A stretch of 64,000 nucleotides of DNA from Antedon mediterranea (taxonomy: Eukaryota; Echinodermata; Crinoidea; Comatulida; Antedonidae): assembly GCF_964355755.1 (NCBI RefSeq), contig NC_092672.1:11528501-11592500 (forward strand), in the 5' to 3' direction. Shown piece after piece: positions 30,059 to 61,230 of the stretch. Made by a program: the position numbers and the translations under genes. Below the pieces are notes generated by a model. That model searched no databases. It saw only the letters and a list, made by a program, of their open reading frames with translations, and was not told the origin of the DNA. Numbering within the stretch: position 1 is the first letter of the stretch; each line of letters begins with the position of its first letter.

Positions 30059-30066
30059 CGCTGCCA
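30059..30066 (+). pseudogene. 3' remnant of a tRNA-Leu gene at the array edge
   Basis: CGCTGCCA followed directly by the usual spacer (ATATAATTTTACCAGCTC). Everything 5' of it is replaced by the purine-rich tract, so the array was cut inside a gene. Confidence 0.75.
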
Positions 30067-30170
30067 ATATAATTTTACCAGCTCACTGCATAACGTACAA
30101 ATGATAATAAATGCAAAAATTCATGAGAAATACCAAAACTATTTTTCTAAATAAATGTGAAAACATTCAA

Positions 30171-30252
30171 GGTAGCGTGGCCGAGCGGTCTAAGGCGCTG
30201 GTTTTAGGCACCATTAATTTCGATAGCGTGGGTTAGAATGCCACCGCTACCA
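30171..30252 (+). pseudogene. tRNA-Leu (TAG)-like, degenerate
   Basis: Unit 1. Anticodon-stem 3' strand ACCAT, T loop TTAGAAT and T-stem GCCAC break the fold and the B box. Confidence 0.6.
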
Positions 30253-30344
30253 ATATTCTTTTACTGGCTCATTACATAACGTACAAATGATATATTGTTA
30301 TATTTCATGAGAAAACCCGAAACCATAATTAAAAGAATATTCAC

Positions 30345-30426
30345 GGTAGCGTGGCCGAGCGGTCTAAGGCGCTGGTTTTAGGCATCAGTCATTTCGATGG
30401 CGTGGGTTCGAATCCCACCGCTGCCA
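30345..30426 (+). tRNA. tRNA-Leu (TAG)
   Basis: Unit 2. One G-U pair in the anticodon stem (ATCAG). Confidence 0.85.
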
Positions 30427-30529
30427 GTATTTTTGTTACCGACTCCCTACATAACGTACAAATGATATAATTTAAAAACTCATGAGAAATACAGAAACCA
30501 TTTTTCTAAATCAATGTGACAACATTCAA

Positions 30530-30611
30530 GGTGGCGTAGCCGAGCGATCTAAGGCGCTTGTTTAAGGCACCAGTCATTTCGATGGCGTGGGTTCGAATCC
30601 CACCGCTGACA
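30530..30611 (+). tRNA. tRNA-Leu (AAG), diverged
   Basis: Unit 3. Acceptor GGTGGCG/CGCTGAC has a G-A mismatch; CTTGT gives a T-C mismatch in the anticodon stem; D loop GAGCGATCTAA. Confidence 0.55.
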
Positions 30612-30703
30612 GTATTTTTTTACCGACTCCCTACATAACGTACAAATGATATATTGTAAAATTTCATGAGAAAAACCGAAACCATAATTAAACGATCATT
30701 CAC

Positions 30704-30785
30704 GGTAGCGTGGCCGAGCGGTCTAAGGCGCTGGTTTAAGGCACCAGTCATTTCGATGGCGTGGGTTCGAATCCCACCGCTGCCA
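30704..30785 (+). tRNA. tRNA-Leu (AAG)
   Basis: Unit 4. First exact AAG consensus copy: loop TTAAGGC. Confidence 0.92.
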
Positions 30786-30892
30786 GTATTTTTGTTACCG
30801 ACTCCCTACATAACGTACAAATGATATAATGTAAAAATTCATGAGAAATACCAAAACCATTTTTTGTTCTAAATAAATGTGAATACATTGAA

Positions 30893-30974
30893 GGTAGCGT
30901 AGCCGAGCGGTCTAAGGCGCTTGTCTAAGGCACCAGTAATTTCGATGGCGTGGGTTCGAATCCCACCGCTGCCA
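30893..30974 (+). tRNA. tRNA-Leu (AAG), class C
   Basis: Unit 5. Type copy of a third class: GTAGCC at positions 8-12, anticodon stem CTTGT (T-C mismatch), loop CTAAGGC, variable arm TAATTTCGATGGC. Confidence 0.7.
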
Positions 30975-31077
30975 GTATAATTTTACCAGCTCGCTACATA
31001 ACGTACAAATGATATAATGTAACAATTCATGAGAAATACCGAAACCATTTTTTCTAAATAAATGTGAAAACATTCAA

Positions 31078-31159
31078 GGTAGCGTGGCCGAGCGGTCTAA
31101 GGCGCTGGTTTCAGGCACCAGTCATTTCGATGGCGTGGGTTCGAATCCCACCGCTGCCA
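31078..31159 (+). tRNA. tRNA-Leu (CAG)
   Basis: Unit 6. Loop TTCAGGC gives anticodon CAG, the only one in the array; the rest is consensus. Confidence 0.85.
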
Positions 31160-31262
31160 ATATACTTTTACTAGCTCACTACATAACGTACAAATGATGT
31201 AATGTAACAATTCATGAGAAATACCGAAACCATTTTTTGTAAATAAATGTGAAAACATTCAA

Positions 31263-31344
31263 GGTAGTGTGGCCGAACGGTCTAAGGCTCTGGTTTTAGG
31301 CACCAGTCATTTCGATGGCGTGGGTTCGAATCCCACCGCTGCCA
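31263..31344 (+). tRNA. tRNA-Leu (TAG)
   Basis: Unit 7. GGTAGTG acceptor, D loop GAACGG (A box altered), T at position 26. Confidence 0.75.
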
Positions 31345-31435
31345 GTATTTTTTACCGACTCCCTACATAACGCACAATTGATATAATGTAAAATGTCATG
31401 AGAAATACCGAAACCATAATTAAACGATCATTCAC

Positions 31436-31522
31436 GGTAGCGTGGCCGAGCGGTCTACCCTAAGGCGCTGGTTTAAGGCATCAGTCATTTCGATGGCGTG
31501 GGTTCGAATCCCACCGCTGCCA
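31436..31522 (+). tRNA. tRNA-Leu (AAG) with D-loop insertion
   Basis: Unit 8. Five extra bases in the D loop (GGTCTACCCTAA) and ATCAG in the anticodon stem; 87 nt. Confidence 0.55.
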
Positions 31523-31627
31523 GTATTTTTGTTACCGACTCCCTACATAACGTACAAATGATATAATGTAAAAATTCATGAGAAATACCAAACCATTTTT
31601 TTTCTAAATAAATGTGAATACATTGAA

Positions 31628-31709
31628 GGTAGCGTAGCCGAGCGGTCTAAGGCGCTTGTCTAAGGCACCAGTAATTTCGATGGCGTGGGTTCGAATCCCA
31701 CCGCTGCCA
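31628..31709 (+). tRNA. tRNA-Leu (AAG), class C
   Basis: Unit 9. Same as unit 5. Confidence 0.7.
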
Positions 31710-31812
31710 GTATAATTTTACCAGCTCGCTACATAACGTACAAATGATATAATGTAACAATTCATGAGAAATACCGAAACCATTTTTTCTAAATAAATGT
31801 GAAAACATTCAA

Positions 31813-31894
31813 GGTAGCGTGGCCGAGCGGTCTAAGGCGCTGGTTTTAGGCACCAGTCATTTCGATGGCGTGGGTTCGAATCCCACCGCTGCCA
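31813..31894 (+). tRNA. tRNA-Leu (TAG)
   Basis: Unit 10. Exact TAG consensus: loop TTTAGGC. Confidence 0.92.
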
Positions 31895-31997
31895 ATATAA
31901 TTTTACTAGCTCACTACATAACGTACAAATGATGTAATGTAACAATTCATGAGAAATACCGAAACCATTTTTTCTAAATAAATGTGACAACATTCAA

Positions 31998-35050: not shown

Positions 35051-35132
35051 GGTAGCGTAGCCGAGCGGTCTAAGGCGCTTGTCCAGGGCACTAGTAATTT
35101 CGATGGCGTGGGTTCGAATCCCACCGCTGCCA
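35051..35132 (+). tRNA. tRNA-Leu body with AGG (Pro) anticodon
   Basis: Unit 28. Class C body; loop CCAGGGC gives anticodon AGG and replaces the invariant T33 by C. Stem CTTGT/ACTAG keeps one mismatch. Confidence 0.55.
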
Positions 35133-35598: not shown

Positions 35599-35680
35599 GG
35601 TAGCGTGGCCGAGCGGTCTAAGGCGCTGGTTTAAGGCACCAGTCATTTCGATGGCGTGGGTTCGAATCCCACCGCTGCCA
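35599..35680 (+). tRNA. tRNA-Leu (AAG)
   Basis: Unit 31. Consensus; first gene of 6.5-kb block copy 1. Confidence 0.92.
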
Positions 35681-35786
35681 GTATTTTTGTTACCGACTCC
35701 CTACATAACGTACAAATGATATAATGTAAAAATTCTTGAGAAATACCAAAACCATTTTTTTTCTAAATAAATGTGAATACATTGAA

Positions 35787-35868
35787 GGTAGCGTAGCCGA
35801 GCGGTCTAAGGCGCTTGTCTAAGGCACCAGTAATTTCGATGGCGTGGGTTCGAATCCCACCGCTGCCA
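35787..35868 (+). tRNA. tRNA-Leu (AAG), class C
   Basis: Unit 32. As unit 5. Confidence 0.7.
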
Positions 35869-35971
35869 GTATAATTTTACCAGCTCGCTACATAACGTAC
35901 AAATGATATAATGTAACAATTCATGAGAAATACCGAAACCATTTTTTCTAAATAAATGTGAGAACATTCAA

Positions 35972-36053
35972 GGTAGCGTGGCCGAGCGGTCTAAGGCGCT
36001 GGTTTTAGGCACCAGTCATTTCGATGGCGTGGGTTCGAATCCCACCGCTGCCA
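35972..36053 (+). tRNA. tRNA-Leu (TAG)
   Basis: Unit 33. Consensus. Confidence 0.92.
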
Positions 36054-36156
36054 ATATAATTTTACTAGCTCACTACATAACGTACAAATGATGTAATGTA
36101 ACAATTCATGAGAAATACCGAAACCATTTTTTCTAAATAAATGTGACAACATTCAA

Positions 36157-36238
36157 GGAAGCGTGGCCGAGCGGTCTAAGGCGCTGGTTTTAGGCACCAG
36201 TCATTTCGATGGCGTAGGTTCGAATCCCACCGCTGGCA
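36157..36238 (+). tRNA. tRNA-Leu (TAG)
   Basis: Unit 34. GGAAGCG/CGCTGGC acceptor and GTAGG T stem, three mismatches. Confidence 0.6.
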
Positions 36239-36330
36239 GTATCTTTTTACCGACTCCCTACATAACGCACATTTGATGAAATGTAAAATTTCTTGAGAAA
36301 AACCGAAACCATAATTAAACGAACATTCAC

Positions 36331-36412
36331 GGTAGCGTGGCCGAGCGGTCTAAGGCGCTGGTTTAAGGCACCAGTCATTTCGATGGCGTGGGTTCCAATC
36401 CCACCGCTGCCA
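36331..36412 (+). tRNA. tRNA-Leu (AAG)
   Basis: Unit 35. T loop TTCCAAT. Confidence 0.7.
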
Positions 36413-36515
36413 ATATAATTTTACCAGCTCACTACATAACGTACAAATGATATAATGTAAAAATTCATGAGAAATACCGAAACCATTTTTTCGAAATAAA
36501 TGTGGAAACATTCAA

Positions 36516-36597
36516 GGTAGCGTGGCCGAGCGGTCTTAGGCGCTGGTTTAAGGCACCAGTCATTTCGATGGCGTGGGTTCGAATCCCTCCGCTGCCA
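36516..36597 (+). tRNA. tRNA-Leu (AAG)
   Basis: Unit 36. D loop TCTTA, T stem CCCTC. Confidence 0.75.
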
Positions 36598-36702
36598 GTA
36601 TTTTTTTACCGACTCCCTACATAACGCACAATTGATATAATGTAAAAATTCATGTGAAATACCAAAACCATTTTTTTTCTAAATAAATGTAAATACATTG
36701 AA

Positions 36703-36784
36703 GGTAGCGTGGCCGAGCGGTCTAAGGCGCTGTTTTAAGGAACCTGTCAGTTCGATGGCGTGGGTTCGAATCCCACCGCTGGCA
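36703..36784 (+). tRNA. tRNA-Leu (AAG), diverged
   Basis: Unit 37. Stem CTGTT/ACCTG has two mismatches; TTAAGGA loop; CGCTGGC. Confidence 0.45.
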
Positions 36785-36884
36785 GTATTTTTTGTACTGA
36801 CTCCATACATAACGTACAAATGATATTTAAAAATTCATGAGAAATACCGAAACCATTTTTCTAAATCAATGTGACAACATTCAA

Positions 36885-36966
36885 GGAAGCGTGGCCGAGC
36901 GGTCTAAGGCGCTGGTTTTAGGCACCAGTCATTTCGATGGCGTGGGTTCGAATCCCACCGCTGCCA
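36885..36966 (+). tRNA. tRNA-Leu (TAG)
   Basis: Unit 38. GGAAGCG acceptor. Confidence 0.75.
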
Positions 36967-37058
36967 TTATTTTTTTACCGACTCCCTACATAACGTACAA
37001 ATGATATATTGTAAAATTTCATGAGAAAAACCGAAACCATTATCAAACGATCATTCAC

Positions 37059-37140
37059 GGTAGGGTAGCCGAGCGGTCTAAGGCTCGGGTTTAAGGCACC
37101 AGTCATTTCGATGGCGTGGGTTCGAATCCCACCGCTGCCA
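37059..37140 (+). tRNA. tRNA-Leu (AAG), diverged
   Basis: Unit 39. GGTAGGG acceptor, GTAGCC, T at 26, CGGGT stem. Confidence 0.5.
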
Positions 37141-37246
37141 GTATTTTTGTTACCGACTCCCTACATAACGCACAATTGATATAATGTAAAAATTCATGTG
37201 AAATACCAAAACCATTTTTTTTCTAAATAAATGTAAATACATTGAA

Positions 37247-37328
37247 GGTAGCGTGGCCGAGCGGTCTAAGGCGCTGGTTTAAGGAACCTGTCACTTCGAT
37301 GGCGTGGGTTCGAATCCCACCGCTGGCA
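37247..37328 (+). tRNA. tRNA-Leu (AAG), diverged
   Basis: Unit 40. As unit 22. Confidence 0.6.
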
Positions 37329-37428
37329 GTATTTTTTGTACTGACTCCATACATAACGTACAAATGATATTTAAAAATTCATGAGAAATACCGAAACCAT
37401 TTTTCTAAATCAATGTGACAACATTCAA

Positions 37429-37510
37429 GGAAGCGTGGCCGAGCGGTCTAAGGCGCTGGTTTTAGGCACCAGTCATTTCGATGGCGTGGGTTCGAATCCC
37501 ACCGCTGCCA
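37429..37510 (+). tRNA. tRNA-Leu (TAG)
   Basis: Unit 41. GGAAGCG acceptor. Confidence 0.75.
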
Positions 37511-37602
37511 GTATTTTTTTACCGACTCCCTACATAACGTACAAATGATATATTGTAAAATTTCATGAGAAAAACCGAAACCATTATTAAACGATCATTC
37601 AC

Positions 37603-37684
37603 GGTAGCGTGGCCGAGCGGTCTAAGGCGCTGGTTTAAGGCACCAGTCATTTCGATGGCGTGGGTTCGAATCCCACCGCTGCCA
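37603..37684 (+). tRNA. tRNA-Leu (AAG)
   Basis: Unit 42. Consensus; counterpart of units 27 and 78. Confidence 0.92.
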
Positions 37685-37791
37685 GTATTTTTGTTACCGA
37701 CTCCCTACATAACGTACAAATGATATAATGTAAAAATTCATGAGAAATACCAAAACCATTTTTTTTTCTAAATAAATATGAATACATTGAA

Positions 37792-37873
37792 GGTAGCGTA
37801 GCAGAGCGGTCTAAGGCGCTTGTCCAGGGCACTAGTAATTTCGATGGCGTGGGTTCGAATCCCACCGCTGCCA
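37792..37873 (+). tRNA. tRNA-Leu body with AGG (Pro) anticodon
   Basis: Unit 43. As unit 28 plus GCAGAG in the D stem/A box, which weakens it further. Confidence 0.45.
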
Positions 37874-37980
37874 GTATAATTTTACCAGCTCGCTACATAA
37901 CGTACAAATGATATAATGTAACAATTCATGAGAAATACCGAAACCATTTTTTCTAAATAATTAAATGTGAAAACATTCAA

Positions 37981-38062
37981 GGTAGCGTGGCCGAGCGGTC
38001 TAAGGCGCTGGTTTTAGGCACCAGTCATTTCGATGGCATGGGTTCGAATCCCACCGCTGCCA
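37981..38062 (+). tRNA. tRNA-Leu (TAG)
   Basis: Unit 44. T-stem ATGGG. Confidence 0.8.
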
Positions 38063-38165
38063 ATATACTTTTACTAGCTCACTACATAACGTACAAATGA
38101 TGTAATGTAACAATTCATGAGAAATACCGAAACCATTTTTTGTAAATAAATGTGAAAACATTCAA

Positions 38166-38247
38166 GGTAGCGTGGCCGAGCGGTCTAAGGCTCTGGTTTT
38201 AGGCACCAGTCATTTCGATGGCGTGGGTTCGAATCCCACCGCTGCCA
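38166..38247 (+). tRNA. tRNA-Leu (TAG)
   Basis: Unit 45. T at position 26 only. Confidence 0.88.
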
Positions 38248-38339
38248 GTATTTTTTTACCGACTCCCTACATAACGCACAATTGATATAATGTAAAATGT
38301 CATGAGAAATACCGAAACCATAATTAAACGCTCATTCAC

Positions 38340-38421
38340 GGTAGCGTGGCCGAGCGGTCTAAGGCGCTGGTTTAAGGCACCAGTCATTTCGATGGCGTGG
38401 GTTCGAATCCCACCGCTGCCA
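38340..38421 (+). tRNA. tRNA-Leu (AAG)
   Basis: Unit 46. Consensus. Confidence 0.92.
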
Positions 38422-38527
38422 GTATTTTTGTTACCGACTCCCTACATAACGTACAAATGATATAATGTAAAAATTCATGAGAAATACCAAAACCATTTTT
38501 TTTCTAAATAAATGTGAATACATTGAA

Positions 38528-38609
38528 GGTAGCGTAGCCGAGCGGTCTAAGGCGCTTGTCTAAGGCACCAGTAATTTCGATGGCGTGGGTTCGAATCCCA
38601 CCGCTGCCA
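38528..38609 (+). tRNA. tRNA-Leu (AAG), class C
   Basis: Unit 47. As unit 5. Confidence 0.7.
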
Positions 38610-38712
38610 GTAAAATTTTACCAGCTCGCTACATAACGTACAAATGATATAATGTAACAATTCATGAGAAATACCGAAACCATTTTTTCTAAATAAATGT
38701 GAAAACATTCAA

Positions 38713-39070: not shown

Positions 39071-39152
39071 GGTAGCGTGGCCGAGCGGTCTAAGGCGCTG
39101 GTTTTAGGCACCAGTCATTTCGATGGCGTGGGTTCGAATCCCACCGCTGCCA
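39071..39152 (+). tRNA. tRNA-Leu (TAG)
   Basis: Unit 50. Consensus. Confidence 0.92.
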
Positions 39153-39255
39153 ATATAATTTTACTAGCTCACTACATAACGTACAAATGATGTAATGTAA
39201 CAATTCATGAGAAATACCGAAACCATTTTTTCTAAATAAATGTGACAACATTCAA

Positions 39256-39337
39256 GGAAGCGTGGCCGAGCGGTCTAAGGCGCTGGTTTTAGGCACCAGT
39301 CATTTCGATGCCGTAGGTTCGAATCCCACCGCTGGCA
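39256..39337 (+). tRNA. tRNA-Leu (TAG)
   Basis: Unit 51. GGAAGCG/CGCTGGC, variable ATGCC, GTAGG. Confidence 0.55.
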
Positions 39338-39429
39338 GTATCTTTTTACCGACTCCCTACATAACGCACATTTGATGAAATGTAAAATTTCTTGAGAAAA
39401 ACCGAAACCATAATTAAACAAACATTCAC

Positions 39430-39511
39430 GGTAGCGTGGCCGAGCGGTCTAAGGCGCTGGTTTAAGGCACCAGTCATTTCGATGGCGTGGGTTCCAATCC
39501 CACCGCTGCCA
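39430..39511 (+). tRNA. tRNA-Leu (AAG)
   Basis: Unit 52. T loop TTCCAAT. Confidence 0.7.
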
Positions 39512-39614
39512 ATATAATTTTACCAGCTCACTACATAACGTACAAATGATATAATGTAAAAATTCATGAGAAATACCGAAACCATTTTTTCGAAATAAAT
39601 GTGGAAACATTCAA

Positions 39615-39696
39615 GGTAGCGTGGCCGAGCGGTCTTAGGCGCTGGTTTAAGGCACCAGTCATTTCAATGGCGTGGGTTCGAATCCCTCCGCCGCCA
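39615..39696 (+). tRNA. tRNA-Leu (AAG)
   Basis: Unit 53. TCTTA, CAATGGC variable end, CCCTC, CGCCGCC. Confidence 0.6.
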
Positions 39697-39788
39697 GTAT
39701 CTTTTTACCGACTCCCTACATAACGCACAATTGATATAATGTAAAATTTCTTGAGAAAAACCGAAACCATAATTAAACGAACATTCAC

Positions 39789-39870
39789 GGTAGCGTAGCC
39801 GAGCGGTCTAAGGCGCTTGTCTAAGGCACCAGTAATTTCGATGGCGTGGGTTCGAATACCACCGCTGCCA
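39789..39870 (+). tRNA. tRNA-Leu (AAG), class C
   Basis: Unit 54. As unit 5 with T-stem ACCAC mismatch. Confidence 0.6.
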
Positions 39871-39973
39871 GTATAATTTTACCAGCTCGCTACATAACGT
39901 ACAAATGATATAATGTAACAATTCATGAGAAATACCGAAACCATTTTTTCTAAATAAATGTGAAAACATTCAA

Positions 39974-40055
39974 GGTAGCGTGGCCGAGCGGTCTAAGGCG
40001 CTGGTTTTAGGCACCAGTCATTTCGATGGCGTGGGTTCGAATCCCACCGCTGCCA
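39974..40055 (+). tRNA. tRNA-Leu (TAG)
   Basis: Unit 55. Consensus. Confidence 0.92.
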
Positions 40056-40159
40056 ATATAATTTTACTAGCTCACTACATAACGTACAAATGATGTAATG
40101 TAACAATTCATGAGAAATACCGAAACCATTTTTTCTAAATTAAATGTGACAACATTCAA

Positions 40160-40241
40160 GGAAGCGTGGCCGAGCGGTCTAAGGCGCTGGTTTTAGGCAC
40201 CAGTCATTTCGATGGCGTAGGTTCGAATCCCACCGCTGGCA
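40160..40241 (+). tRNA. tRNA-Leu (TAG)
   Basis: Unit 56. As unit 34. Confidence 0.6.
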
Positions 40242-40333
40242 GTATCTTTTTACCGACTCCCTACATAACGCACATTTGATAAAATGTAAAATTTCTTGAG
40301 AAAAACCGAAACCATAATTAAACGAACATTCAC

Positions 40334-40415
40334 GGTAGCGTGGCCGAGCGGTCTAAGGCGCTGGTGTAAGGCACCAGTCATTTCGATGGCGTGGGTTCCA
40401 ATCCCACCGCTGCCA
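40334..40415 (+). tRNA. tRNA-Leu (AAG)
   Basis: Unit 57. Loop GTAAGGC (G32) and TTCCAAT. Confidence 0.6.
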
Positions 40416-40518
40416 ATATAATTTTACCAGCTCACTACATAACGTACAAATGATATAATGTAAAAATTCATGAGAAATACCGAAACCATTTTTTCTAAAT
40501 AAATGTGGAAACATTCAA

Positions 40519-40600
40519 GGTAGCGTGGCCGAGCGGTCTTAGGCGCTGGTTTAAGGCACCAGTCATTTCAATGGCGTGGGTTCGAATCCCACCGCCGCCA
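40519..40600 (+). tRNA. tRNA-Leu (AAG)
   Basis: Unit 58. TCTTA, CAATGGC, CGCCGCC. Confidence 0.68.
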
Positions 40601-40692
40601 GTATCTTTTTACCGACTCCCTACATAACGCACAATTGATATAATGTAAAATTTCTTGAGAAAAACCGAAACCATAATTAAACGAACATTCAC

Positions 40693-40774
40693 GGTAGCGT
40701 GGCCGAGCGGTCTAAGGCTCTGGTTTAAGGCACCAGTCATTTCGATGGCGTGGGTTCGAATCCCACCGCTGCCA
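40693..40774 (+). tRNA. tRNA-Leu (AAG)
   Basis: Unit 59. T at position 26. Confidence 0.88.
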
Positions 40775-40878
40775 ATATAATTTTACCAGCTCTCTACATA
40801 ACGTACAAATGATATAATATAACAATTCATGAGAAGTACCGAAACCATTTTTTTCTAAATAAATGTGAAAACATTCAC

Positions 40879-40960
40879 GGTAGCGTGGCCGAGCGGTCTA
40901 AGGCGCTGGTTTAAGGCACCAGTCATTTCGATGGCGTGGGTTCGAATCCCACCGCTGCCA
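40879..40960 (+). tRNA. tRNA-Leu (AAG)
   Basis: Unit 60. Consensus. Confidence 0.92.
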
Positions 40961-41063
40961 ATATAATTTAACCAGCTCTCTACATAACGTACAAATGATA
41001 TAATATAACAATTCATGAGAAGTACCGTAACCATTTTTTCTAAATAAATGTGAAAACATTCAA

Positions 41064-41145
41064 GGTAGCGTGGCCGAGCGATCTAAGGCGCTGGTTTTAG
41101 GCACCAGTCATTGCGATGGCATGGGTTTGAATCCCACCGCTGCCA
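41064..41145 (+). tRNA. tRNA-Leu (TAG)
   Basis: Unit 61. D loop GAGCGATC, variable TCATTGCG, ATGGG, T loop TTTGAAT. Confidence 0.6.
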
Positions 41146-41247
41146 ATATTCTTTTACCGGCTCATTACATAAGGTACAAATGATATAATGTAAAAATTCA
41201 TGAGAAATAGCAAAATTATTTTTCTAAATCAATGTGACAACATTCAA

Positions 41248-41329
41248 AGTGGCGTAGCCGAGCGGTCTAAGGCGCTTGTCTAAGGCACCAGTAATTTCGA
41301 TGGCGTGGGTTAGAATGCCACCGATACCA
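41248..41329 (+). pseudogene. tRNA-Leu (AAG)-like, degenerate
   Basis: Unit 62. AGTGGCG/CGATACC acceptor, class C arm, T loop TTAGAAT. Confidence 0.7.
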
Positions 41330-41422
41330 ATATTCTTTTACCGGCTAATTACATAACGTATAAATGATATATTGTAAAATTTAATGAGAAAAAACCGAAA
41401 CCATAATTAAACGAACGTTTAC

Positions 41423-41504
41423 GGTAGCGTAGCCGAGCGTTCTAAGGCGCTTGTTTAAGGCACCCGTAATTTCGATTGCGTGGGTTAGAATGCCACAGAT
41501 ACCA
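41423..41504 (+). pseudogene. tRNA-Leu (AAG)-like, degenerate
   Basis: Unit 63. D loop GAGCGTT, ACCCG stem, TTAGAAT, acceptor 3' strand AGATACC. Confidence 0.75.
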
Positions 41505-41607
41505 ATATTCTTTTACCGGCTAATTACATAACGTACAAATGATATAATGTAAAAATTCATGAGAAATACCGAAACCATTTTTTCTAAATAAATGTGAAAA
41601 CATTCAA

Positions 41608-41689
41608 GGTAGCGTGGCCGAGCGGTCTAAGACGCTGGTTTTAGGCACCAGTCATTTTGATGGCGTGGGTTCGAATCCCACCGCTGCCA
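41608..41689 (+). tRNA. tRNA-Leu (TAG)
   Basis: Unit 64. D-stem GAC mismatch, variable TTTG. Confidence 0.75.
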
Positions 41690-41780
41690 GTATATTTTTA
41701 CCGACTCCCTACAAAACGCACAATTGATAAAATGTAAGATTTCATGAAAAAACCGAAACCATAATTAAACGAACATTCAC

Positions 41781-41862
41781 GGTAGCGTGGCCGAGCGGTC
41801 TAAGGCGCTGGTTTAAGGCACCAGTCGTTTCGATGGCGTGGGTTCGAATCCCACCGCTGCCA
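41781..41862 (+). tRNA. tRNA-Leu (AAG)
   Basis: Unit 65. Variable arm TCGTTTCGATGGC (G-U pair). Confidence 0.88.
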
Positions 41863-41965
41863 ATATAATTTTACCAGCTCACTTCATAACGTACAAATGA
41901 TATAATGTAACAATTCATGAGAAATACCCAAACCAGTTTTTCTAAATAAATGTGAAAACATTCAA

Positions 41966-42139: not shown

Positions 42140-42221
42140 GGTAGCGTGGCCGAGCGGTCTAAGGCGCTGGTTTAAGGCACCAGTCATTTCGATGGCGTGG
42201 GTTCGAATCCCACCGCTGCCA
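42140..42221 (+). tRNA. tRNA-Leu (AAG)
   Basis: Unit 67. Consensus; counterpart of unit 31. Confidence 0.92.
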
Positions 42222-42327
42222 GTATTTTTGTTACCGACTCCCTACATAACGTACAAATGATATAATGTAAAAATTCTTGAGAAATACCAAAACCATTTTT
42301 TTTCTAAATAAATGTGAATACATTGAA

Positions 42328-42409
42328 GGTAGCGTAGCCGAGCGGTCTAAGGCGCTTGTCTAAGGCACCAGTAATTTCGATGGCGTGGGTTCGAATCCCA
42401 CCGCTGCCA
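42328..42409 (+). tRNA. tRNA-Leu (AAG), class C
   Basis: Unit 68. Counterpart of unit 32. Confidence 0.7.
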
Positions 42410-42512
42410 GTATAATTTTACCAGCTCGCTACATAACGTACAAATGATATAATGTAACAATTCATGAGAAATACCGAAACCATTTTTTCTAAATAAATGT
42501 GAGAACATTCAA

Positions 42513-42594
42513 GGTAGCGTGGCCGAGCGGTCTAAGGCGCTGGTTTTAGGCACCAGTCATTTCGATGGCGTGGGTTCGAATCCCACCGCTGCCA
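42513..42594 (+). tRNA. tRNA-Leu (TAG)
   Basis: Unit 69. Consensus. Confidence 0.92.
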
Positions 42595-42697
42595 ATATAA
42601 TTTTACTAGCTCACTACATAACGTACAAATGATGTAATGTAACAATTCATGAGAAATACCGAAACCATTTTTTCTATATAAATGTGACAACATTCAA

Positions 42698-42779
42698 GGA
42701 AGCGTGGCCGAGCGGTCTAAGGCGCTGGTTTTAGGCACCAGTCATTTCGATGGCGTAGGTTCGAATCCCACCGCTGGCA
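42698..42779 (+). tRNA. tRNA-Leu (TAG)
   Basis: Unit 70. Counterpart of unit 34, same mismatches. Confidence 0.6.
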
Positions 42780-51614: not shown

Positions 51615-51696
51615 GGTAGCGTGGCCGAGCGGTCTAAGGCGCTGGTTTAAGGCACCAGTCATTTCGATGGCGTGGGTTCGAATCCCACCGCTGCCA
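51615..51696 (+). tRNA. tRNA-Leu (AAG)
   Basis: Unit 119. Consensus. Confidence 0.92.
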
Positions 51697-51799
51697 ATAT
51701 AATTTTACCAACTCACTACATAACGTAAAAATGATATAATGTAAAAATTCATGAGAAATACCGAAACCATTTGTTCTAAATAAATGTGAAAAAATTCAA

Positions 51800-51881
51800 G
51801 GTAGCGTGGCCGAGCGGTCTAAGGCGCTGGTTTAAGGCACCAGTCATTTCGATGGCGTGGGTTCCAATCCCACCGCTGCCA
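51800..51881 (+). tRNA. tRNA-Leu (AAG)
   Basis: Unit 120. TTCCAAT. Confidence 0.7.
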
Positions 51882-51984
51882 ATATAATTTTACCAGCTCA
51901 CTACATAACGTACAAATGATATAATGTAAAAATTCATGAGAAATACCGAAACAATTTTTTCTAAATAAATGTGAAAACATTCAA

Positions 51985-52066
51985 GGTAGAGTGGCCGAGC
52001 GGTCTAAGGCGCTGGTTAAAGGCACCAGTCATTTCGATGGCGTGGGTTCGAATCCCACCGCTGCCA
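51985..52066 (+). tRNA. tRNA-Leu (AAG), A33
   Basis: Unit 121. GGTAGAG acceptor; loop TAAAGGC replaces the invariant T33 by A. Confidence 0.5.
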
Positions 52067-52170
52067 ATATAATGTTACCAGCTCTCTACATAACGTACAA
52101 CTGATATAATATAACAATTCATGAGAAGTACCGAAACCATTTTTTTCTAAATAAATGTGAAAACATTCAA

Positions 52171-52252
52171 GGTAGCGTGGCCGAGCGTTCTAAGGCGCTG
52201 GTTTTAGGCACCAGTCATTGCGATGGCGTGTGTTCGAATCCCACCGCTGCCA
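52171..52252 (+). tRNA. tRNA-Leu (TAG)
   Basis: Unit 122. D loop GAGCGTT, TCATTGCG, T-stem GTGTG. Confidence 0.6.
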
Positions 52253-52344
52253 ATATTCTTTTACCGGCTCATTACATAACGTACAAATGATATATTGTAA
52301 AATTTCATGAGAAAAGCCGAAACCATAATTAAACAAACATTCAC

Positions 52345-52426
52345 GGTAGCGTGGACGAGCGGTCTAAGGCGCTGGTTTAAGGAACCAGTCATTTCGATGG
52401 AGTGGGTTCGAATCCCACCGCTGCCA
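52345..52426 (+). tRNA. tRNA-Leu (AAG)
   Basis: Unit 123. D-stem GAC, TTAAGGA, variable end ATGGA. Confidence 0.65.
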
Positions 52427-52529
52427 ACCTAATTTTACCAACTCACTACATAACGTACAAATGATATAATGTAAAAATTCATGAGAAATACCGAAACCAT
52501 TTTTTCTAAATAAATGTGGAAACATTCAA

Positions 52530-52611
52530 GGTAGCGTGGCCGAGCGGTCTAAGGCGCTGGTTTTAGGCACCAGTCATTTCGATGGCGTGGGTTCGAATCC
52601 CACCGTTGCCA
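52530..52611 (+). tRNA. tRNA-Leu (TAG)
   Basis: Unit 124. Acceptor CGTTGCC (G-U). Confidence 0.85.
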
Positions 52612-52702
52612 GTATTTTTTTACCGACTCCCTACAAAACGCACAATTGATATAATGTAAGATTTCATGAAAAAACCGAAACCATAATTACACGAACAATC
52701 AC

Positions 52703-52784
52703 GGTAGCGTGGCCGAGCGGTCTAAGGCGCTGGTTTAAGGCACCAGTCATTTTGATGGCGTGGGTTCGAATCCCACCGCTGCCA
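52703..52784 (+). tRNA. tRNA-Leu (AAG)
   Basis: Unit 125. Variable TTTG loop. Confidence 0.88.
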
Positions 52785-52887
52785 ATATAATTTTACCAGC
52801 TCACTACGTAACGTACAAATGATATAATGTAACAATTCATGAGAAATACCGAAACCAGTTTTTCTAAATAAATGTGAAAACATTCAA

Positions 52888-52969
52888 GGTAGCGTGGCCG
52901 AGCGGTCTAAGGCGCTGGTTTTAGGCACCAGTCATTTCGATGGCGTGGGTTCGAATCCCACCGCTGCCA
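52888..52969 (+). tRNA. tRNA-Leu (TAG)
   Basis: Unit 126. Consensus. Confidence 0.92.
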
Positions 52970-53061
52970 GTATTTTTTTACCGACTCCCTACATAACGCA
53001 CAATTGATATAATGTAAAATGTCATGAGAAATACCGAAACCATAATTAAACGAACATTCAC

Positions 53062-53143
53062 GGTAGCGTGGCCGAGCGGTCTAAGGCGCTGGTTTAAGGC
53101 ACCAGTCATTTCGATGGCGTGGGTTCGAATCCCACCGCTGCAA
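53062..53143 (+). tRNA. tRNA-Leu (AAG)
   Basis: Unit 127. Acceptor ends CGCTGCA, terminal mismatch. Confidence 0.75.
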
Positions 53144-53247
53144 GTATTTTTGTTACCGACTCCCTACATAACGTACAAATGATATAATGTAAAAATTCAT
53201 GAGAAATACCGAAACCATTTTTTATAAATAAATGTGAAAACATTCAA

Positions 53248-53329
53248 GGTATCGTGGCCGAGCGGTCTAAGGCGCTGGTTTTAGGCACCAGTCATTTCGA
53301 TGGCGTGGGTTCGAATCCCACCGCTGCCA
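53248..53329 (+). tRNA. tRNA-Leu (TAG)
   Basis: Unit 128. GGTATCG acceptor, one mismatch. Confidence 0.75.
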
Positions 53330-53432
53330 ATATAATTTTACCAGCTCACTACATAACGTACAAATGATGTAATGTAACAATTCATGAGAAATACCGAAAC
53401 CATTTTTTCTAAATAAATGTGACAACATTCAA

Positions 53433-53514
53433 GGTGGCGTAGCCGAGCGGTCTAAGGCGCTTGTTTAAGGCACCAGCAACTTCGATGGCGTGGGTTAGAA
53501 TGGCACCGCTACCA
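53433..53514 (+). pseudogene. tRNA-Leu (AAG)-like, degenerate
   Basis: Unit 129. Counterpart of unit 113, 2894 bp on. Confidence 0.65.
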
Positions 53515-53606
53515 ATATTCTTTTACCGGCTCATTACATAACGTACAAATGATATATTGTAAAATTTCATGAGAAAAACCGAAACCATAATTAAACGAAC
53601 ATTCAC

Positions 53607-54512: not shown

Positions 54513-54594
54513 GGTAGCGTGGCCGAGCGGTCTAAGGCGCTGGTTTAAGGCACCAGTCATTTCGATGGCGTGGGTTCGAATCCCACCGCTGCCA
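54513..54594 (+). tRNA. tRNA-Leu (AAG)
   Basis: Unit 135. Consensus. Confidence 0.92.
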
Positions 54595-54697
54595 ATATAA
54601 TTTTACCAACTCACTACATAACGTAAAAATGATATAATGTAACAATTCATGAGAAATACCGAAACCATTTGTTCTAAATAAATGTGAAAAAATTCAA

Positions 54698-54779
54698 GGT
54701 AGCGTGGCCGAGCGGTCTAAGGCGCTGGTTTAAGGCACCAGTCATTTCGATGGCGTGGGTTCCAATCCCACCGCTGCCA
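54698..54779 (+). tRNA. tRNA-Leu (AAG)
   Basis: Unit 136. TTCCAAT. Confidence 0.7.
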
Positions 54780-54882
54780 ATATAATTTTACCAGCTCACT
54801 ACATAACGTACAAATGATATAATGTAAAAATTCATGAGAAATACCGAAACCATTTTTTCTAAATAAATGTGAAAACATTCAA

Positions 54883-54964
54883 GGTAGAGTGGCCGAGCGG
54901 TCTAAGGCGCTGGTTAAAGGCACCAGTCATTTCGATGGCGTGGGTTCGAATCCCACCGCTGCCA
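54883..54964 (+). tRNA. tRNA-Leu (AAG), A33
   Basis: Unit 137. Counterpart of unit 121. Confidence 0.5.
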
Positions 54965-55068
54965 ATATAATGTTACCAGCTCTCTACATAACGTACAACT
55001 GATATAATATAACAATTCATGAGAAGTACCGAAACCATTTTTTTCTAAATAAATGTGAAAACATTCAA

Positions 55069-55150
55069 GGTAGCGTGGCCGAGCGTTCTAAGGCGCTGGT
55101 TTTAGGCACCAGTCATTGCGATGGCGTGTGTTCGAATCCCACCGCTGCCA
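55069..55150 (+). tRNA. tRNA-Leu (TAG)
   Basis: Unit 138. Counterpart of unit 122. Confidence 0.6.
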
Positions 55151-55242
55151 ATATTCTTTTACCGGCTCATTACATAACGTACAAATGATATATTGTAAAA
55201 TTTCATGAGAAAAGCCGAAACCATAATTAAACAAACATTCAC

Positions 55243-55324
55243 GGTAGCGTGGACGAGCGGTCTAAGGCGCTGGTTTAAGGAACCAGTCATTTCGATGGAG
55301 TGGGTTCGAATCCCACCGCTGCGA
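55243..55324 (+). tRNA. tRNA-Leu (AAG)
   Basis: Unit 139. As unit 123 plus acceptor end CGCTGCG (terminal G-G). Confidence 0.55.
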
Positions 55325-55427
55325 ACCTAATTTTACCAACTCACTACATAACGTACAAATGATATAATGTAAAAATTCATGAGAAATACCGAAACCATTT
55401 TTTCTAAATAAATGTGGAAACATTCAA

Positions 55428-55509
55428 GGTAGCGTGGCCGAGTGGTCTAAGGCGCTGGTTTTAGGCACCAGTCATTTCGATGGCGTGGGTTCGAATCCCA
55501 CCGTTGCCA
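55428..55509 (+). tRNA. tRNA-Leu (TAG)
   Basis: Unit 140. GAGTGG D loop, CGTTGCC. Confidence 0.85.
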
Positions 55510-55600
55510 GTATTTTTTTACCGACTCCCTACAAAACGCACAATTGATATAATGTAAGATTTCATGAAAAAACCGAAACCATAATTACACGAACAATCAC

Positions 55601-55682
55601 GGTAGCGTGGCCGAGCGGTCTAAGGCGCTGGTTTAAGGCACCAGTCATTTCGATGGCGTGGGTTCGAATCCCACCGCTGCCA
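55601..55682 (+). tRNA. tRNA-Leu (AAG)
   Basis: Unit 141. Consensus. Confidence 0.92.
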
Positions 55683-55785
55683 ATATAATTTTACCAGCTC
55701 ACTACGTAACGTACAAATGATATAATGTAACAATTCATGAGAAATACCGAAACCAGTTTTTCTAAATAAATGTGAAAACATTCAA

Positions 55786-55867
55786 GGTAGCGTGGCCGAG
55801 CGGTCTAAGGCGCTGGTTTTAGGCACCAGTCATTTCGATGGCGTGGGTTCGAATCCCACCGCTGCCA
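55786..55867 (+). tRNA. tRNA-Leu (TAG)
   Basis: Unit 142. Consensus. Confidence 0.92.
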
Positions 55868-55959
55868 GTATTTTTTTACCGACTCCCTACATAACGCACA
55901 ATTGATATAATGTAAAATGTCATGAGAAATACCGAAACCATAATTAAACGAACATTCAC

Positions 55960-56041
55960 GGTAGCGTGGCCGAGCGGTCTAAGGCGCTGGTTTAAGGCAC
56001 CAGTCATTTCGATGGCGTGGGTTCGAATCCCACCGCTGCCA
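55960..56041 (+). tRNA. tRNA-Leu (AAG)
   Basis: Unit 143. Consensus. Confidence 0.92.
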
Positions 56042-56145
56042 GTATTTTTGTTACCGACTCCCTACATAACGTACAAATGATATAATGTAAAAATTCATGA
56101 GAAATACCGAAACCATTTTTTATAAATAAATGTGAAAACATTCAA

Positions 56146-56227
56146 GGTAGCGTGGCCGAGCGGTCTAAGGCGCTGGTTTTAGGCACTAGTCATTTCGATG
56201 GCGTGGGTTCGAATCCCACCGCTGCCA
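56146..56227 (+). tRNA. tRNA-Leu (TAG)
   Basis: Unit 144. ACTAG (G-U in anticodon stem). Confidence 0.88.
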
Positions 56228-56330
56228 ATATAATTTTACCAGCTCACTACATAACGTACAAATGATGTAATGTAACAATTCATGAGAAATACCGAAACCA
56301 TTTTTTCTAAATAAATGTGACAACATTCAA

Positions 56331-56412
56331 GGAAGCGTAGCCGAGCGGTCTAAGGCGCTTGTTTAAGGCACCAGCAACTTCGATGGCGTGGGTTAGAATG
56401 GCACCGCTACCA
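56331..56412 (+). pseudogene. tRNA-Leu (AAG)-like, degenerate
   Basis: Unit 145. Counterpart of 113/129 with GGAAGCG acceptor. Confidence 0.68.
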
Positions 56413-56504
56413 ATATTCTTTTACCGGCTCATTACATAACGTACAAATGATATATTGTAAAATTTCATGAGAAAAACCGAAACCATAATTAAACGAACAT
56501 TCAC

Positions 56505-59318: not shown

Positions 59319-59421
59319 ATATAATTTTACCAGCTCACTACATAACGTACAAATGATATAATGTAAAAATTCATGAGAAATACCAAAACCATTTTTTCTA
59401 AATAAATGTGAAAACATTCAA

Positions 59422-59503
59422 GGTAGCGTGGCCGAGCGGTCTAAGGCGCTGGTTTTAGGCACCAGTCATTTCGATGGCGTGGGTTCGAATCCCACCGCTG
59501 CCA
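59422..59503 (+). tRNA. tRNA-Leu (TAG)
   Basis: Unit 162. Consensus. Confidence 0.92.
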
Positions 59504-59606
59504 ATATAATTTTACCAGCTCACTACATAACGTACAAATAATATAATGTAACAATTCATGAGAAATACCGAACCATTTTTTTCTAAATAAATGTGAAAAC
59601 ATTCAA

Positions 59607-59688
59607 GGTAGCGTGGCCGAGCGGTCTAAGTCGCTGGTTTTAGGCACCAGTCATTTCGATGGCGTGGGTTCGAATCCCACCGCTGCCA
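59607..59688 (+). tRNA. tRNA-Leu (TAG)
   Basis: Unit 163. D-stem GTC, as unit 110. Confidence 0.75.
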
Positions 59689-59794
59689 GTATTTTTTTAC
59701 CGACTCCCTACATAACGCACAATTGATATAATGTAAAAATTCATGAGAAATACCAAAAACCATTTTTTTTCTAAATAAATGTGAATACATTGAA

Positions 59795-59876
59795 GGTAGT
59801 GTGGGCGAGCGGTCTAAGGCGCTGGTTTAAGGAACCAGTCACTTCGATGGCGTGGGTTCGAATCCCACCGCTGCCA
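59795..59876 (+). tRNA. tRNA-Leu (AAG)
   Basis: Unit 164. GGTAGTG, D-stem GGC/GGC, TTAAGGA, TCACTTCG, as unit 111. Confidence 0.6.
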
Positions 59877-59980
59877 GTATTTTTTGTACCGACTCCATAC
59901 ATAACGTACAAATGATATAATGTAAAAATTCATGAGAAATACCGAAACCATTTTTTATAAATAAATGTGAAAACATTCAA

Positions 59981-60062
59981 GGTAGCGTGGCCGAGCGGTC
60001 TAAGGCGCTGGTTTTAGGCACCAGTCATTTCGATGGCGTGGGTTCGAATCCCACCGCTGCCA
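59981..60062 (+). tRNA. tRNA-Leu (TAG)
   Basis: Unit 165. Consensus. Confidence 0.92.
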
Positions 60063-60165
60063 ATATAATTTTACCAGCTCACTACATAACGTACAAATGA
60101 TGTAATGTAACAATTCATGAGAAATACCGAAACCATTTTTTCTAAATAAATGTGACAACATTCAA

Positions 60166-60247
60166 GGTGGCGTAGCCGAGCGGTCTAAGGCGCTTGTTTA
60201 AGGCACCAGCAACTTCGATGGCGTGGGTTAGAATGGCACCGCTACCA
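60166..60247 (+). pseudogene. tRNA-Leu (AAG)-like, degenerate
   Basis: Unit 166. Counterpart of unit 113, 9627 bp on. Confidence 0.65.
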
Positions 60248-60339
60248 ATATTCTTTTACCGGCTCATTACATAACGTACAAGTGATATATTGTAAAATTT
60301 CATGAGAAAAACCGAAACCATAATTAAACGAACATTCAC

Positions 60340-60421
60340 GGTAGCGTGGCCGAGCGGTCTAAGGCGCTGGTTTAAGGCACCAGTCATTTCGATGGCGTGG
60401 GTTCGAATCCCACCGCTGGCA
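60340..60421 (+). tRNA. tRNA-Leu (AAG)
   Basis: Unit 167. Acceptor CGCTGGC, one mismatch. Confidence 0.78.
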
Positions 60422-60524
60422 ATATAATTTTACCAACTCACTACATAACGTAAAAATGATATAATGTAACAATTCATGAGAAATACCGAAACCATTTGTT
60501 CTAAATAAATGTGAAAAAATTCAA

Positions 60525-60606
60525 GGTAGCGTGGCCGAGCGGTCTAAGGCGCTGGTTTTAGGCACCAGTCATTTCGATGGCATGGGTTCCAATCCCACCG
60601 CTGCCA
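60525..60606 (+). tRNA. tRNA-Leu (TAG)
   Basis: Unit 168. T-stem ATGGG and TTCCAAT, the only TAG copy with that T loop. Confidence 0.62.
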
Positions 60607-60709
60607 ATATAATTTTACCAGCTCACTACATAACGTACAAATGATATAATGTAAAAATTCATGAGAAATACCGAAACCATTTTTTCTAAAAAAATGTGAA
60701 AACATTCAA

Positions 60710-60791
60710 GGTAGCGTGGCCAAGCGGTCTAAGGCGCTGGTTTTAGGCAGCAGTCATTTCGATGGCGTGGGTTCGAATCCCACCGCTGCCA
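60710..60791 (+). tRNA. tRNA-Leu (TAG)
   Basis: Unit 169. GCCAAGCGG A box, AGCAG stem mismatch. Confidence 0.68.
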
Positions 60792-60883
60792 GTATTTTTT
60801 TACCGACTCCCTACATAACGCACAATTGATATAATGTAAAAATTCATGAGAAATAGCAAAACCATAATTAAACGAACATTCAC

Positions 60884-60967
60884 GGTAGCGTGGCCGAGCG
60901 GTCTAAGGCGCTGGTTTAAGGAACCAGTCATTTCGATGGAGTGGGTTCGAATCCCACACAGCTGCCA
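60884..60967 (+). tRNA. tRNA-Leu (AAG), 2-nt insertion
   Basis: Unit 170. Acceptor junction CCCACACAGCTGCC; loop TTAAGGA. Confidence 0.5.
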
Positions 60968-61070
60968 ACCTAATTTTACCAGCTCACTACATAACGTACA
61001 AATGATATAATGTAAAAATTCATGAGAAATACCGAAACCATTTTTTCTAAATAAATGTGAAAACATTCAA

Positions 61071-61158
61071 GGTAGTGTGGCCGAGCGGTCTTAGGTTTGT
61101 GGTGGTTTTAGGCACCAGTAATTTCGATGGCGTGGGTTCGAATCCCACACAGCTGCCA
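61071..61158 (+). tRNA. tRNA-Leu (TAG), last unit, degenerate
   Basis: Unit 171. GGTAGTG, D-arm 3' side rewritten as TTAGGTTTGTGGTGG, acceptor junction CACACAGCTGCC. Array-edge copies being most diverged is usual for tandem arrays. Confidence 0.45.
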
Positions 61159-61230
61159 ATATAATTTTACCAGCTCACTACATAACGTACGTACGTACAA
61201 TTTCATGAGAAATACCGAAACAGTTTTTTT

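What the first reader, a model, noticed from the sequence alone, without database searches (positions are those of the whole stretch)
30059..61230. Giant single-family tRNA-Leu array: 171 units in 31 kb
All units lie on one strand and share one class-II tRNA body with intact pol III boxes, long variable arm and A73. This far exceeds the few to few dozen tRNA-Leu genes typical of a metazoan genome. Roughly 154 units look foldable. The array could be a high-dose tRNA source, a pol III/TFIIIC-bound chromatin domain, or satellite DNA that merely began as tRNA genes.
Basis: partly seen in the sequence, partly recalled or inferred. Interest (0 to 1): 0.9.

Follow-up and report, generated by a model that had tools for sequence, protein, structure and literature searches.

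The report
Tandem array of 171 tRNA-Leu genes
An unidentified animal's chromosome carries 171 head-to-tail copies of one leucine tRNA gene; the array is real and striking, but the same genome has several such small-RNA gene arrays and similar arrays are published for the hydroid Hydractinia.

Summary
Window 30059-61190 is a same-strand head-to-tail array of 171 units, mostly 174-186 bp, each a tRNA-Leu body plus about 100 bp of spacer. Anticodons AAG (96) and TAG (68) are intermixed, with seven odd units. It is not unique in its genome (354 Mb, 18 contigs, animal-type genes). A second Leu array of 140 units lies 2.4 Mb away, and tRNA-Lys, tRNA-Cys and U5 snRNA arrays lie elsewhere. At least three solo Leu genes with array-type bodies sit in unrelated flanks.

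Within arrays the body changes as often as the spacer, so single copies look expendable. Yet the only bodies shared by the two arrays are the two perfect consensus sequences, and differences between arrays lie mainly in the spacer. I read it as a redundant, concertedly evolving gene array: a tRNA-dosage reservoir, probably for oocyte or embryo demand, with a neutral satellite as the main rival. Expression is untested.

Precedent: arrays of tRNAs for all 20 amino acids plus U1, U2, U5, U6 and U3 in Hydractinia, and tRNA and U5 arrays in Nematostella (PMC11067881). New member of a known kind.

The parts
30059..61190 (+). whole tandem array, 171 units of tRNA-Leu body (82 nt in 161 of them) plus spacer (about 85-110 bp)
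   Evidence: TRF; fuzzy unit search
30059..30066 (+). left edge: begins inside the 3' end of a tRNA body (CGCTGCCA), directly after a purine-rich low-complexity stretch
   Evidence: sequence; GC skew 0.33 in 28001-30000
30171..30252 (+). first complete tRNA-Leu unit (TAG), with box B reading GGTTAGAATGC
30704..30785 (+). example of the exact consensus Leu-AAG body; 16 of 171 units carry it, identical to solo genes on C1 and C2
31813..31894 (+). example of the exact consensus Leu-TAG body; 18 of 171 units carry it
31078..31159 (+). single Leu-CAG unit
35051..35132 (+). unit with AGG (Pro-type) anticodon and C33; sister units at 37792 and 44333
35599..38712 (+). 17-unit block, repeated at 42140-45253 with 99.9% identity
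39071..41965 (+). 16-unit block, repeated at 45254-48147 with 99.8% identity
51615..53606 (+). 11-unit block, repeated at 54513-56504 with 99.5% identity
61071..61158 (+). last, degenerate unit (11 differences and inserted bases), followed by a shortened spacer that ends near 61230
   Evidence: sequence

Best explanation
A tandemly amplified array of nuclear tRNA-Leu genes (anticodons AAG, expected to be read as IAG, and UAG), one of several small-RNA gene arrays in this animal's genome. SHOWN: unit structure, strand, anticodon mix, block duplications, a sister array 2.4 Mb away, and solo genes with the same body. INFERRED (strong): the array arose from one tRNA-Leu gene with about 100 bp of flank and grew by unequal exchange and block duplication, so units evolve in concert. 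INFERRED (moderate): a large fraction of units is competent for pol III transcription through internal A and B boxes, with a T-run terminator in the spacer. Selection acts on the pool, keeping enough perfect copies, rather than on each copy. INFERRED (weak, my commitment): its use is gene dosage, a large stock of Leu tRNA at times of high demand such as oogenesis and early embryo, while solo genes suffice elsewhere. This would work like the oocyte-specific tandem tRNA arrays of Xenopus.
For: Observation. The body consensus is the same in both arrays except for the first anticodon base, which is polymorphic in each. Of 87 and 49 distinct bodies, the two arrays share exactly two, the perfect AAG and TAG consensus. 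Two solo genes on C1 and C2 carry the exact AAG body and one on C1 a TAG body one base from consensus; similarity to array units ends within about a dozen bases of the body. Columns differentiated between arrays (Fst over 0.25): 1 of 82 in the body, 16 of 102 in the spacer, Fisher p = 0.0005. Sliding the 82-column block round the unit gives a net divergence this low at only 1 of 184 offsets, its own. Downstream TTTT in 164 of 171 and 133 of 140 units. Other arrays in the genome: Lys-TTT (188 of 193 ARAGORN calls in 120 kb), Lys-CTT (22 of 25 calls in 10 kb), Cys (39 of 42 calls in 10 kb), U5, tandem B-box pairs. Published analogues: Hydractinia; Xenopus oocyte-specific arrays active at zygotic genome activation (PMC11500080, a commentary, passages).
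Against: Tree-counted changes per column are as frequent in the body as in the spacer (3.17 vs 2.91, p = 0.29). On a spacer-only tree the body has more (4.30 vs 2.75, p = 0.001). With base composition controlled, no class differs clearly. Only 69 of 171 and 64 of 140 units have a fully sound cloverleaf with a Leu anticodon. At Fst over 0.5 the body/spacer contrast vanishes (0 of 82 vs 2 of 102, p = 0.5) and the rank test on net divergence gives p = 0.08. The 16 differentiated spacer columns are probably linked through a few spacer types, so the first Fst test overstates independence. Solo genes may suffice, and no expression data exist here. TAG units carry an internal TTTT (positions 32-35 of the body) that could weaken transcription, although Lys-TTT genes carry one too.
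Confidence: 0.55

Rival explanations
1. Neutral satellite: a tRNA gene plus flank was caught in tandem amplification. The copies are mostly silent or irrelevant and the solo genes do the work.
For: Body and spacer change at the same rate on the unit tree. 102 of 171 units have at least one broken pair or another defect. Three units have a Pro-type anticodon. Monomer lengths of 174-186 bp are satellite-like (background knowledge). Maize has a 92 kb tRNA satellite array (PMC10335936, passages).
Against: Divergence between arrays mostly spares the body. The shared bodies are exactly the two functional consensus forms. Several different small-RNA genes, including U5 (pol II-transcribed, background knowledge), are arrayed in the same genome, which suggests a gene-related cause. 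Sister array 2 ends about 1.2 kb from a GPCR-like ORF, so it is not deep in satellite territory.
Confidence: 0.33
2. TFIIIC/Pol III-bound chromatin domain or boundary element, with RNA output secondary.
For: Dense B boxes about every 185 bp. A human tRNA tandem repeat at 1q23.3 was implicated as a boundary (PMC4041453, search listing only).
Against: Selection for TFIIIC binding alone would not need the anticodon and acceptor arm to be kept, yet the consensus keeps the whole body.
Confidence: 0.07
3. Assembly artefact: copies multiplied by the assembler or by merged haplotypes.
For: Three block pairs at 99.5-99.9% identity could be merged haplotypes.
Against: 87 distinct bodies among 171 units, a mean identity of all unit pairs of 0.86, and independent arrays of other genes on other contigs. 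Collapsing the three block pairs (17, 16 and 11 units) would still leave 127 units.
Confidence: 0.04

Closest known systems
Small-RNA gene tandem arrays of Hydractinia (PMC11067881; passages and the whole of section 14 read) and Nematostella (same paper; PMC2888827, passages)
   Same: Animal genome; [quoted passage not shown] U5 arrayed too; several isotypes arrayed.
   Different: [quoted passage not shown] Species here not identified. Nematostella adjacent pairs are described as mostly heterogeneous, here a single isotype.
[quoted passage not shown]
   Same: Tandem tRNA genes as a high-dose battery, with other gene copies elsewhere (the Xenopus somatic copies are recalled).
   Different: Stage-specific expression reported there; nothing is known here.
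Entamoeba tRNA arrays (PMC2652664, abstract)
   Same: tRNA genes in tandem arrays.
   Different: Array units there hold up to five tRNA genes, in some species with short tandem repeats between them, and almost all tRNA genes of E. histolytica are arrayed. Here one gene per unit, and solo copies exist.
Arabidopsis SYY cluster (PMC12308677, abstract) and maize tRNA satellite (PMC10335936, passages)
   Same: Tandem tRNA genes; one silenced in most tissues but reactivated in root cap, one treated as a satellite.
   Different: Plants. The SYY cluster decodes Ser and Tyr; chromatin state unknown here.
Zebrafish Chr4R tRNA concentration (PMC11075544, passages)
   Same: tRNA genes concentrated; maternal 5S, U1 and U6 genes co-located there, and a maternal role for the tRNAs proposed by the authors.
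   Different: A heterochromatic chromosome arm there; here short arrays on several contigs.

Membership tests
Eukaryotic nuclear tRNA-Leu genes | Class II cloverleaf with long variable arm, Leu anticodon, A73, U33 | tested here: met
   Most units: ARAGORN 156 Leu of 160 calls, cmscan 157 matches, A73 171/171. Fully sound in 69/171, with one broken pair allowed in 107/171; the rest are more damaged.
Eukaryotic nuclear tRNA-Leu genes | Type 2 pol III promoter (A and B boxes) and downstream T-run | tested here: met
   Exact box A 124/171, exact box B 130/171, TTTT within 30 nt in 164/171. Promoter activity itself not testable.
Eukaryotic nuclear tRNA-Leu genes | Transcribed and charged | not testable with these tools
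Metazoan small-RNA tandem arrays (Hydractinia type) | Evenly spaced tandem copies, tens to hundreds, same orientation | tested here: met
   second array.
Metazoan small-RNA tandem arrays (Hydractinia type) | Several small-RNA families arrayed in one genome | tested here: met
   Leu twice; Lys-TTT, Lys-CTT, Cys; U5. Not every isotype was surveyed.
[quoted passage not shown]
   Spacer about 85-110 bp in the Leu array. The paper describes this spacing; I do not take it as defining.
Entamoeba-type tRNA arrays | Multi-gene units with short tandem repeats between genes | tested here: not met
   One gene per unit; TRF lists no short-period repeat inside the array.
Satellite DNA without gene function | Functional part evolves no slower than the spacer | tested here: inconclusive
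   Met within arrays, mostly not met between arrays.
Oocyte-type tRNA batteries (Xenopus) | Expression restricted to oocyte or early embryo | not testable with these tools
   No expression data.

The most novel reading that the evidence does not exclude
The array pair is a stage-specific (oocyte and early embryo) leucine-tRNA battery that mixes two decoders, IAG and UAG, in one array. It is one of a coordinated genome-wide set of arrayed small-RNA genes, in which selection acts on the array's consensus rather than on single copies, and exchange between units keeps switching the first anticodon base (19 changes on the unit tree, the most of any column).
Probability: 0.3. Interest if true: 0.65.

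Novelty: new member of a known kind. Interest (0 to 1): 0.45.

Why it matters
tRNA genes of animals are usually thought of as dispersed and modest in number. A chromosome-level animal genome with separate arrays of Leu, Lys, Cys and U5 genes adds a case to a pattern reported for Hydractinia and Nematostella, whose significance the Hydractinia authors call unclear. Because 85 of 87 and 47 of 49 distinct bodies are not shared between the two arrays, tRNA sequencing could tell which copies are used and when. That would make the question 'gene battery or satellite?' directly testable.

Tried and rejected
Species: not identified. Contig C3 starts with a TTAGGG-type telomere. Of 10 ORFs from fetched loci, 4 have Pfam matches over the cut-off (forkhead; secretin-type GPCR with somatomedin B; NACHT; otopetrin), hence an animal. 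PDB searches with two of them gave only forkhead-type matches for one and nothing for the other. GFP gave no hit, which shows nothing because no control rang either. Genome-note searches found no candidate: one listed only a 285 Mb bumblebee, the other listed 10 of 1,388 papers, none of use.

Unit-by-unit purifying selection: expected for working genes, not found. CpG-decay test for germline methylation: uninformative, because CpG observed/expected is 1.05 and 0.86 in the window flanks and 0.65-1.07 in the other flanks. A regular higher-order repeat: no single lag dominates; instead there are three near-identical block duplications. Internal TTTT as proof of dead TAG units: rejected, because the Lys-TTT genes carry TTTT in the anticodon loop and a solo Leu-TAG gene has it too. 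Centromeric satellite: the arrays lie at scattered places on C2, C3 and C8, one about 1.2 kb from a GPCR-like ORF.

Not done: isotype-by-isotype census, 5S and U6 arrays, and tandem pairs 141-170 bp apart.
Full report
WHAT IS THERE. The window is G000:C3:11528501-11592500 of a 354 Mb genome in 18 contigs. From 30059 to 61190 it is one tandem array: TRF gives period 185 with 171.2 copies, or 359 with 85.6 copies. Searches with a 27-nt 5' probe, up to five errors, give 171 units. ARAGORN tRNAs, all on + and all inside the array (156 Leu, 3 Pro, 1 undetermined). cmscan gives 157 matches over gathering scores in the window, and the 150 listed are all tRNA on +. Start-to-start spacings run from 168 to 192 bp, most often 185 or 174. 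The unit is a class II tRNA-Leu body (82 nt in 161 of 171) and about 100 bp of spacer. Anticodons by the aligned five bases round them: AAG 96 of 171, TAG 68, CAG 1, AAG with A33 2, AGG with C33 3, one deletion.

QUALITY OF THE GENES. With 23 pairs scored, 72 of 171 units have no broken pair. 69 of 171 also have no indel, U33 and a Leu anticodon. 107 of 171 pass with one broken pair allowed. A73 is in 171 of 171, TTTT within 30 nt downstream in 164 of 171, exact box B in 130 and exact box A in 124. So the array is neither uniformly intact nor a graveyard. The Leu-TAG consensus carries an internal TTTT (72 of 171 bodies contain TTTT). That may lower output but is not fatal as such, since the commonest Lys-TTT bodies have it in their anticodon loop.

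NOT ALONE. A second Leu array lies at C3:14008107-14036527 with 140 units (TAG 73, AAG 54, others 13, by the same five-base rule). C8 has tRNA-Lys-TTT: 188 of 193 ARAGORN calls in the 120 kb fetched, and TRF gives 228 copies of 176 bp in 40 kb. C3 at 8.1 Mb has Lys-CTT (22 of 25 calls in 10 kb) and C2 at 14.17 Mb has Cys-GCA (39 of 42 calls in 10 kb). U5 snRNA matches cluster on C2 and C3 (42 of 47), with 4 on C10 and 1 on C9; only 47 of 35,962 first-look candidates were scored, all 47 matched. Tandem B-box pairs 111-141 bp apart number 166+163 against 0+0 in the control; those 171-201 bp apart number 361+74 against 0+1. The two Leu arrays and the C8 Lys array are on +, so the 74 on the other strand suggest further clusters; they were not located, because only the first places are listed. 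B boxes GGTTCGANTCC number 3046 against 165 in the control.

SOLO GENES. Searches found Leu genes at C1:22320925 and C2:7162862 with the exact AAG consensus, and C1:22610989 with a TAG body that differs by one base. A fourth reverse-strand match is counted but not shown, and the list was cut at its first places, so more solo genes may exist. BLAST of the three 3-kb loci against the arrays (the four longest alignments per pair shown) finds alignments of about 91-103 bp that cover the body and at most about a dozen flanking bases. Two matches lie elsewhere in the loci: 446 bp of L021 to array 2's flank and 68 bp of L019 to the C8 region. The array was thus probably seeded from, or shares its body with, ordinary genes. 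It is not the sole source of this tRNA.

HOW IT EVOLVES. Unit pairs average 0.86 identity, neighbours 0.84 with a maximum of 0.973, and 81 of 171 units have an exact partner, never the neighbour. Three block duplications stand out: 35599-38712 with 42140-45253 (99.9%), 39071-41965 with 45254-48147 (99.8%), and 51615-53606 with 54513-56504 (99.5%). In array 2 an 11.7 kb shift gives 96.7%. This is what unequal exchange and block duplication give. A tree was made of 300 of the 311 units (170 of 171 and 130 of 140; the last unit of each array and units with spacers outside 60-115 bp were left out; spacer columns with under 60% occupancy were dropped, leaving 102). Changes per column are 3.17 in the body and 2.91 in the spacer (p = 0.29). 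On a spacer-only tree they are 4.30 and 2.75 (p = 0.001, against selection on the body). Within classes of base composition there is no clear difference: A/T 1.97 (without the anticodon base) vs 2.24, p = 0.57; non-CpG C/G 3.38 vs 5.05, p = 0.055; CpG 4.06 vs 3.33, p = 0.37. So single copies are close to free.

WHAT IS KEPT. The consensus bodies of the two arrays differ only at the first anticodon base, polymorphic in both; the spacer consensus differs at 5 of 102 columns. Of 87 and 49 distinct bodies, two are shared, and they are the AAG and TAG consensus (16+18 of 171 units and 11+9 of 140). Columns with Fst over 0.25: 1 of 82 body, 16 of 102 spacer, p = 0.0005. With Fst over 0.5 it is 0 and 2 (p = 0.5). 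Net divergence per column is 0.0048 vs 0.0423, rank test p = 0.08, block-slide 1 of 184. Linkage among spacer columns weakens the first figure. I read this as weak but real constraint on the family.

CONTEXT. Pfam matches in fetched loci near the other arrays (10 ORFs scanned, 4 with a match over the curated cut-off: NACHT, 7tm_2 with somatomedin B, otopetrin, forkhead) show an animal. The GPCR-like ORF lies about 1.2 kb beyond array 2 (nearer end at C3:14037709, array end 14036527). The genes beside the array in the window itself were not identified; its ORFs were listed but not scanned. The species was not identified.

MECHANISM. Most likely, pol III transcribes a subset of units and the array serves dosage. 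The stage (oocyte, embryo) is by analogy with Xenopus, where a commentary reports oocyte-specific tandem tRNA genes activated at zygotic genome activation (PMC11500080, passages), and with the proposal for zebrafish Chr4R (PMC11075544, passages). The neutral satellite stays a serious rival, as in the maize tRNA satellite (PMC10335936, passages).

AGAINST WHAT IS KNOWN. Hydractinia has arrays of tRNAs for all 20 amino acids and of rRNAs, U1, U2, U5, U6 and U3, and Nematostella has 5S, tRNA and U5 arrays; the authors did not find RNA arrays in other cnidarian genomes (PMC11067881, section 14). Nematostella was earlier reported with over 17000 tRNA genes and pseudogenes, 89% clustered (PMC2888827, passages). 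The present array fits that kind. It differs in its short spacer (about 100 bp) and its mixed AAG/TAG single-isotype make-up. My literature searches were made; none of the papers listed is evidently about this array, but the species is unknown, so no claim of first report is made.

Noticed in passing
G000:C2:25.86-26.05 Mb and C3:25.44-25.46 Mb: Clusters of U5 snRNA matches (42 of the 47 matches lie in these two regions), so U5 genes are arrayed too.
   Followed up: partly
G000:C1, e.g. 3663312/3663679, 5854743/5855110, 6664514/6664881, 9163882/9164249: Dispersed same-strand pairs of B boxes 367-368 bp apart recur along the part of C1 that was listed, possibly a mobile element with a tRNA-like part in repeated ends.
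   Followed up: no
L036-L040 (G000:C8:23.58-23.63 Mb): Repeats of about 3.2 kb that hold Lys-TTT genes and a recurring ORF of about 124-153 aa without Pfam match (one copy scanned), upstream of the dense Lys array.
   Followed up: partly
window 30171-61158, first anticodon base: The AAG/TAG base changes 19 times on the unit tree, the most of any column (next 11); probably exchange between otherwise identical bodies.
   Followed up: partly
window 35051, 37792, 44333: Units with Pro-type AGG anticodon on a Leu body with C33; probably pseudogenes, with miscoding potential if expressed.
   Followed up: no
window 28001-30058: Purine-rich low-complexity stretch (GC skew 0.33, AT skew 0.23 in 28001-30000) that abuts the array's left edge.
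   Followed up: no
window 2360-3202 and 24514-24710: Other tandem repeats: a 49-bp unit, 17.6 copies, and a 16-bp unit, 12.6 copies, the latter open in several frames.
   Followed up: no
window 6348-7115: Repeated AAAATACGGTATA motifs and their complements, perhaps ends of a small inverted-repeat element.
   Followed up: no
G000:C1:11501548-11508965: Dense cluster of GGTTCGAATCC on both strands within 7.4 kb, apparently another tRNA cluster, of mixed orientation.
   Followed up: no
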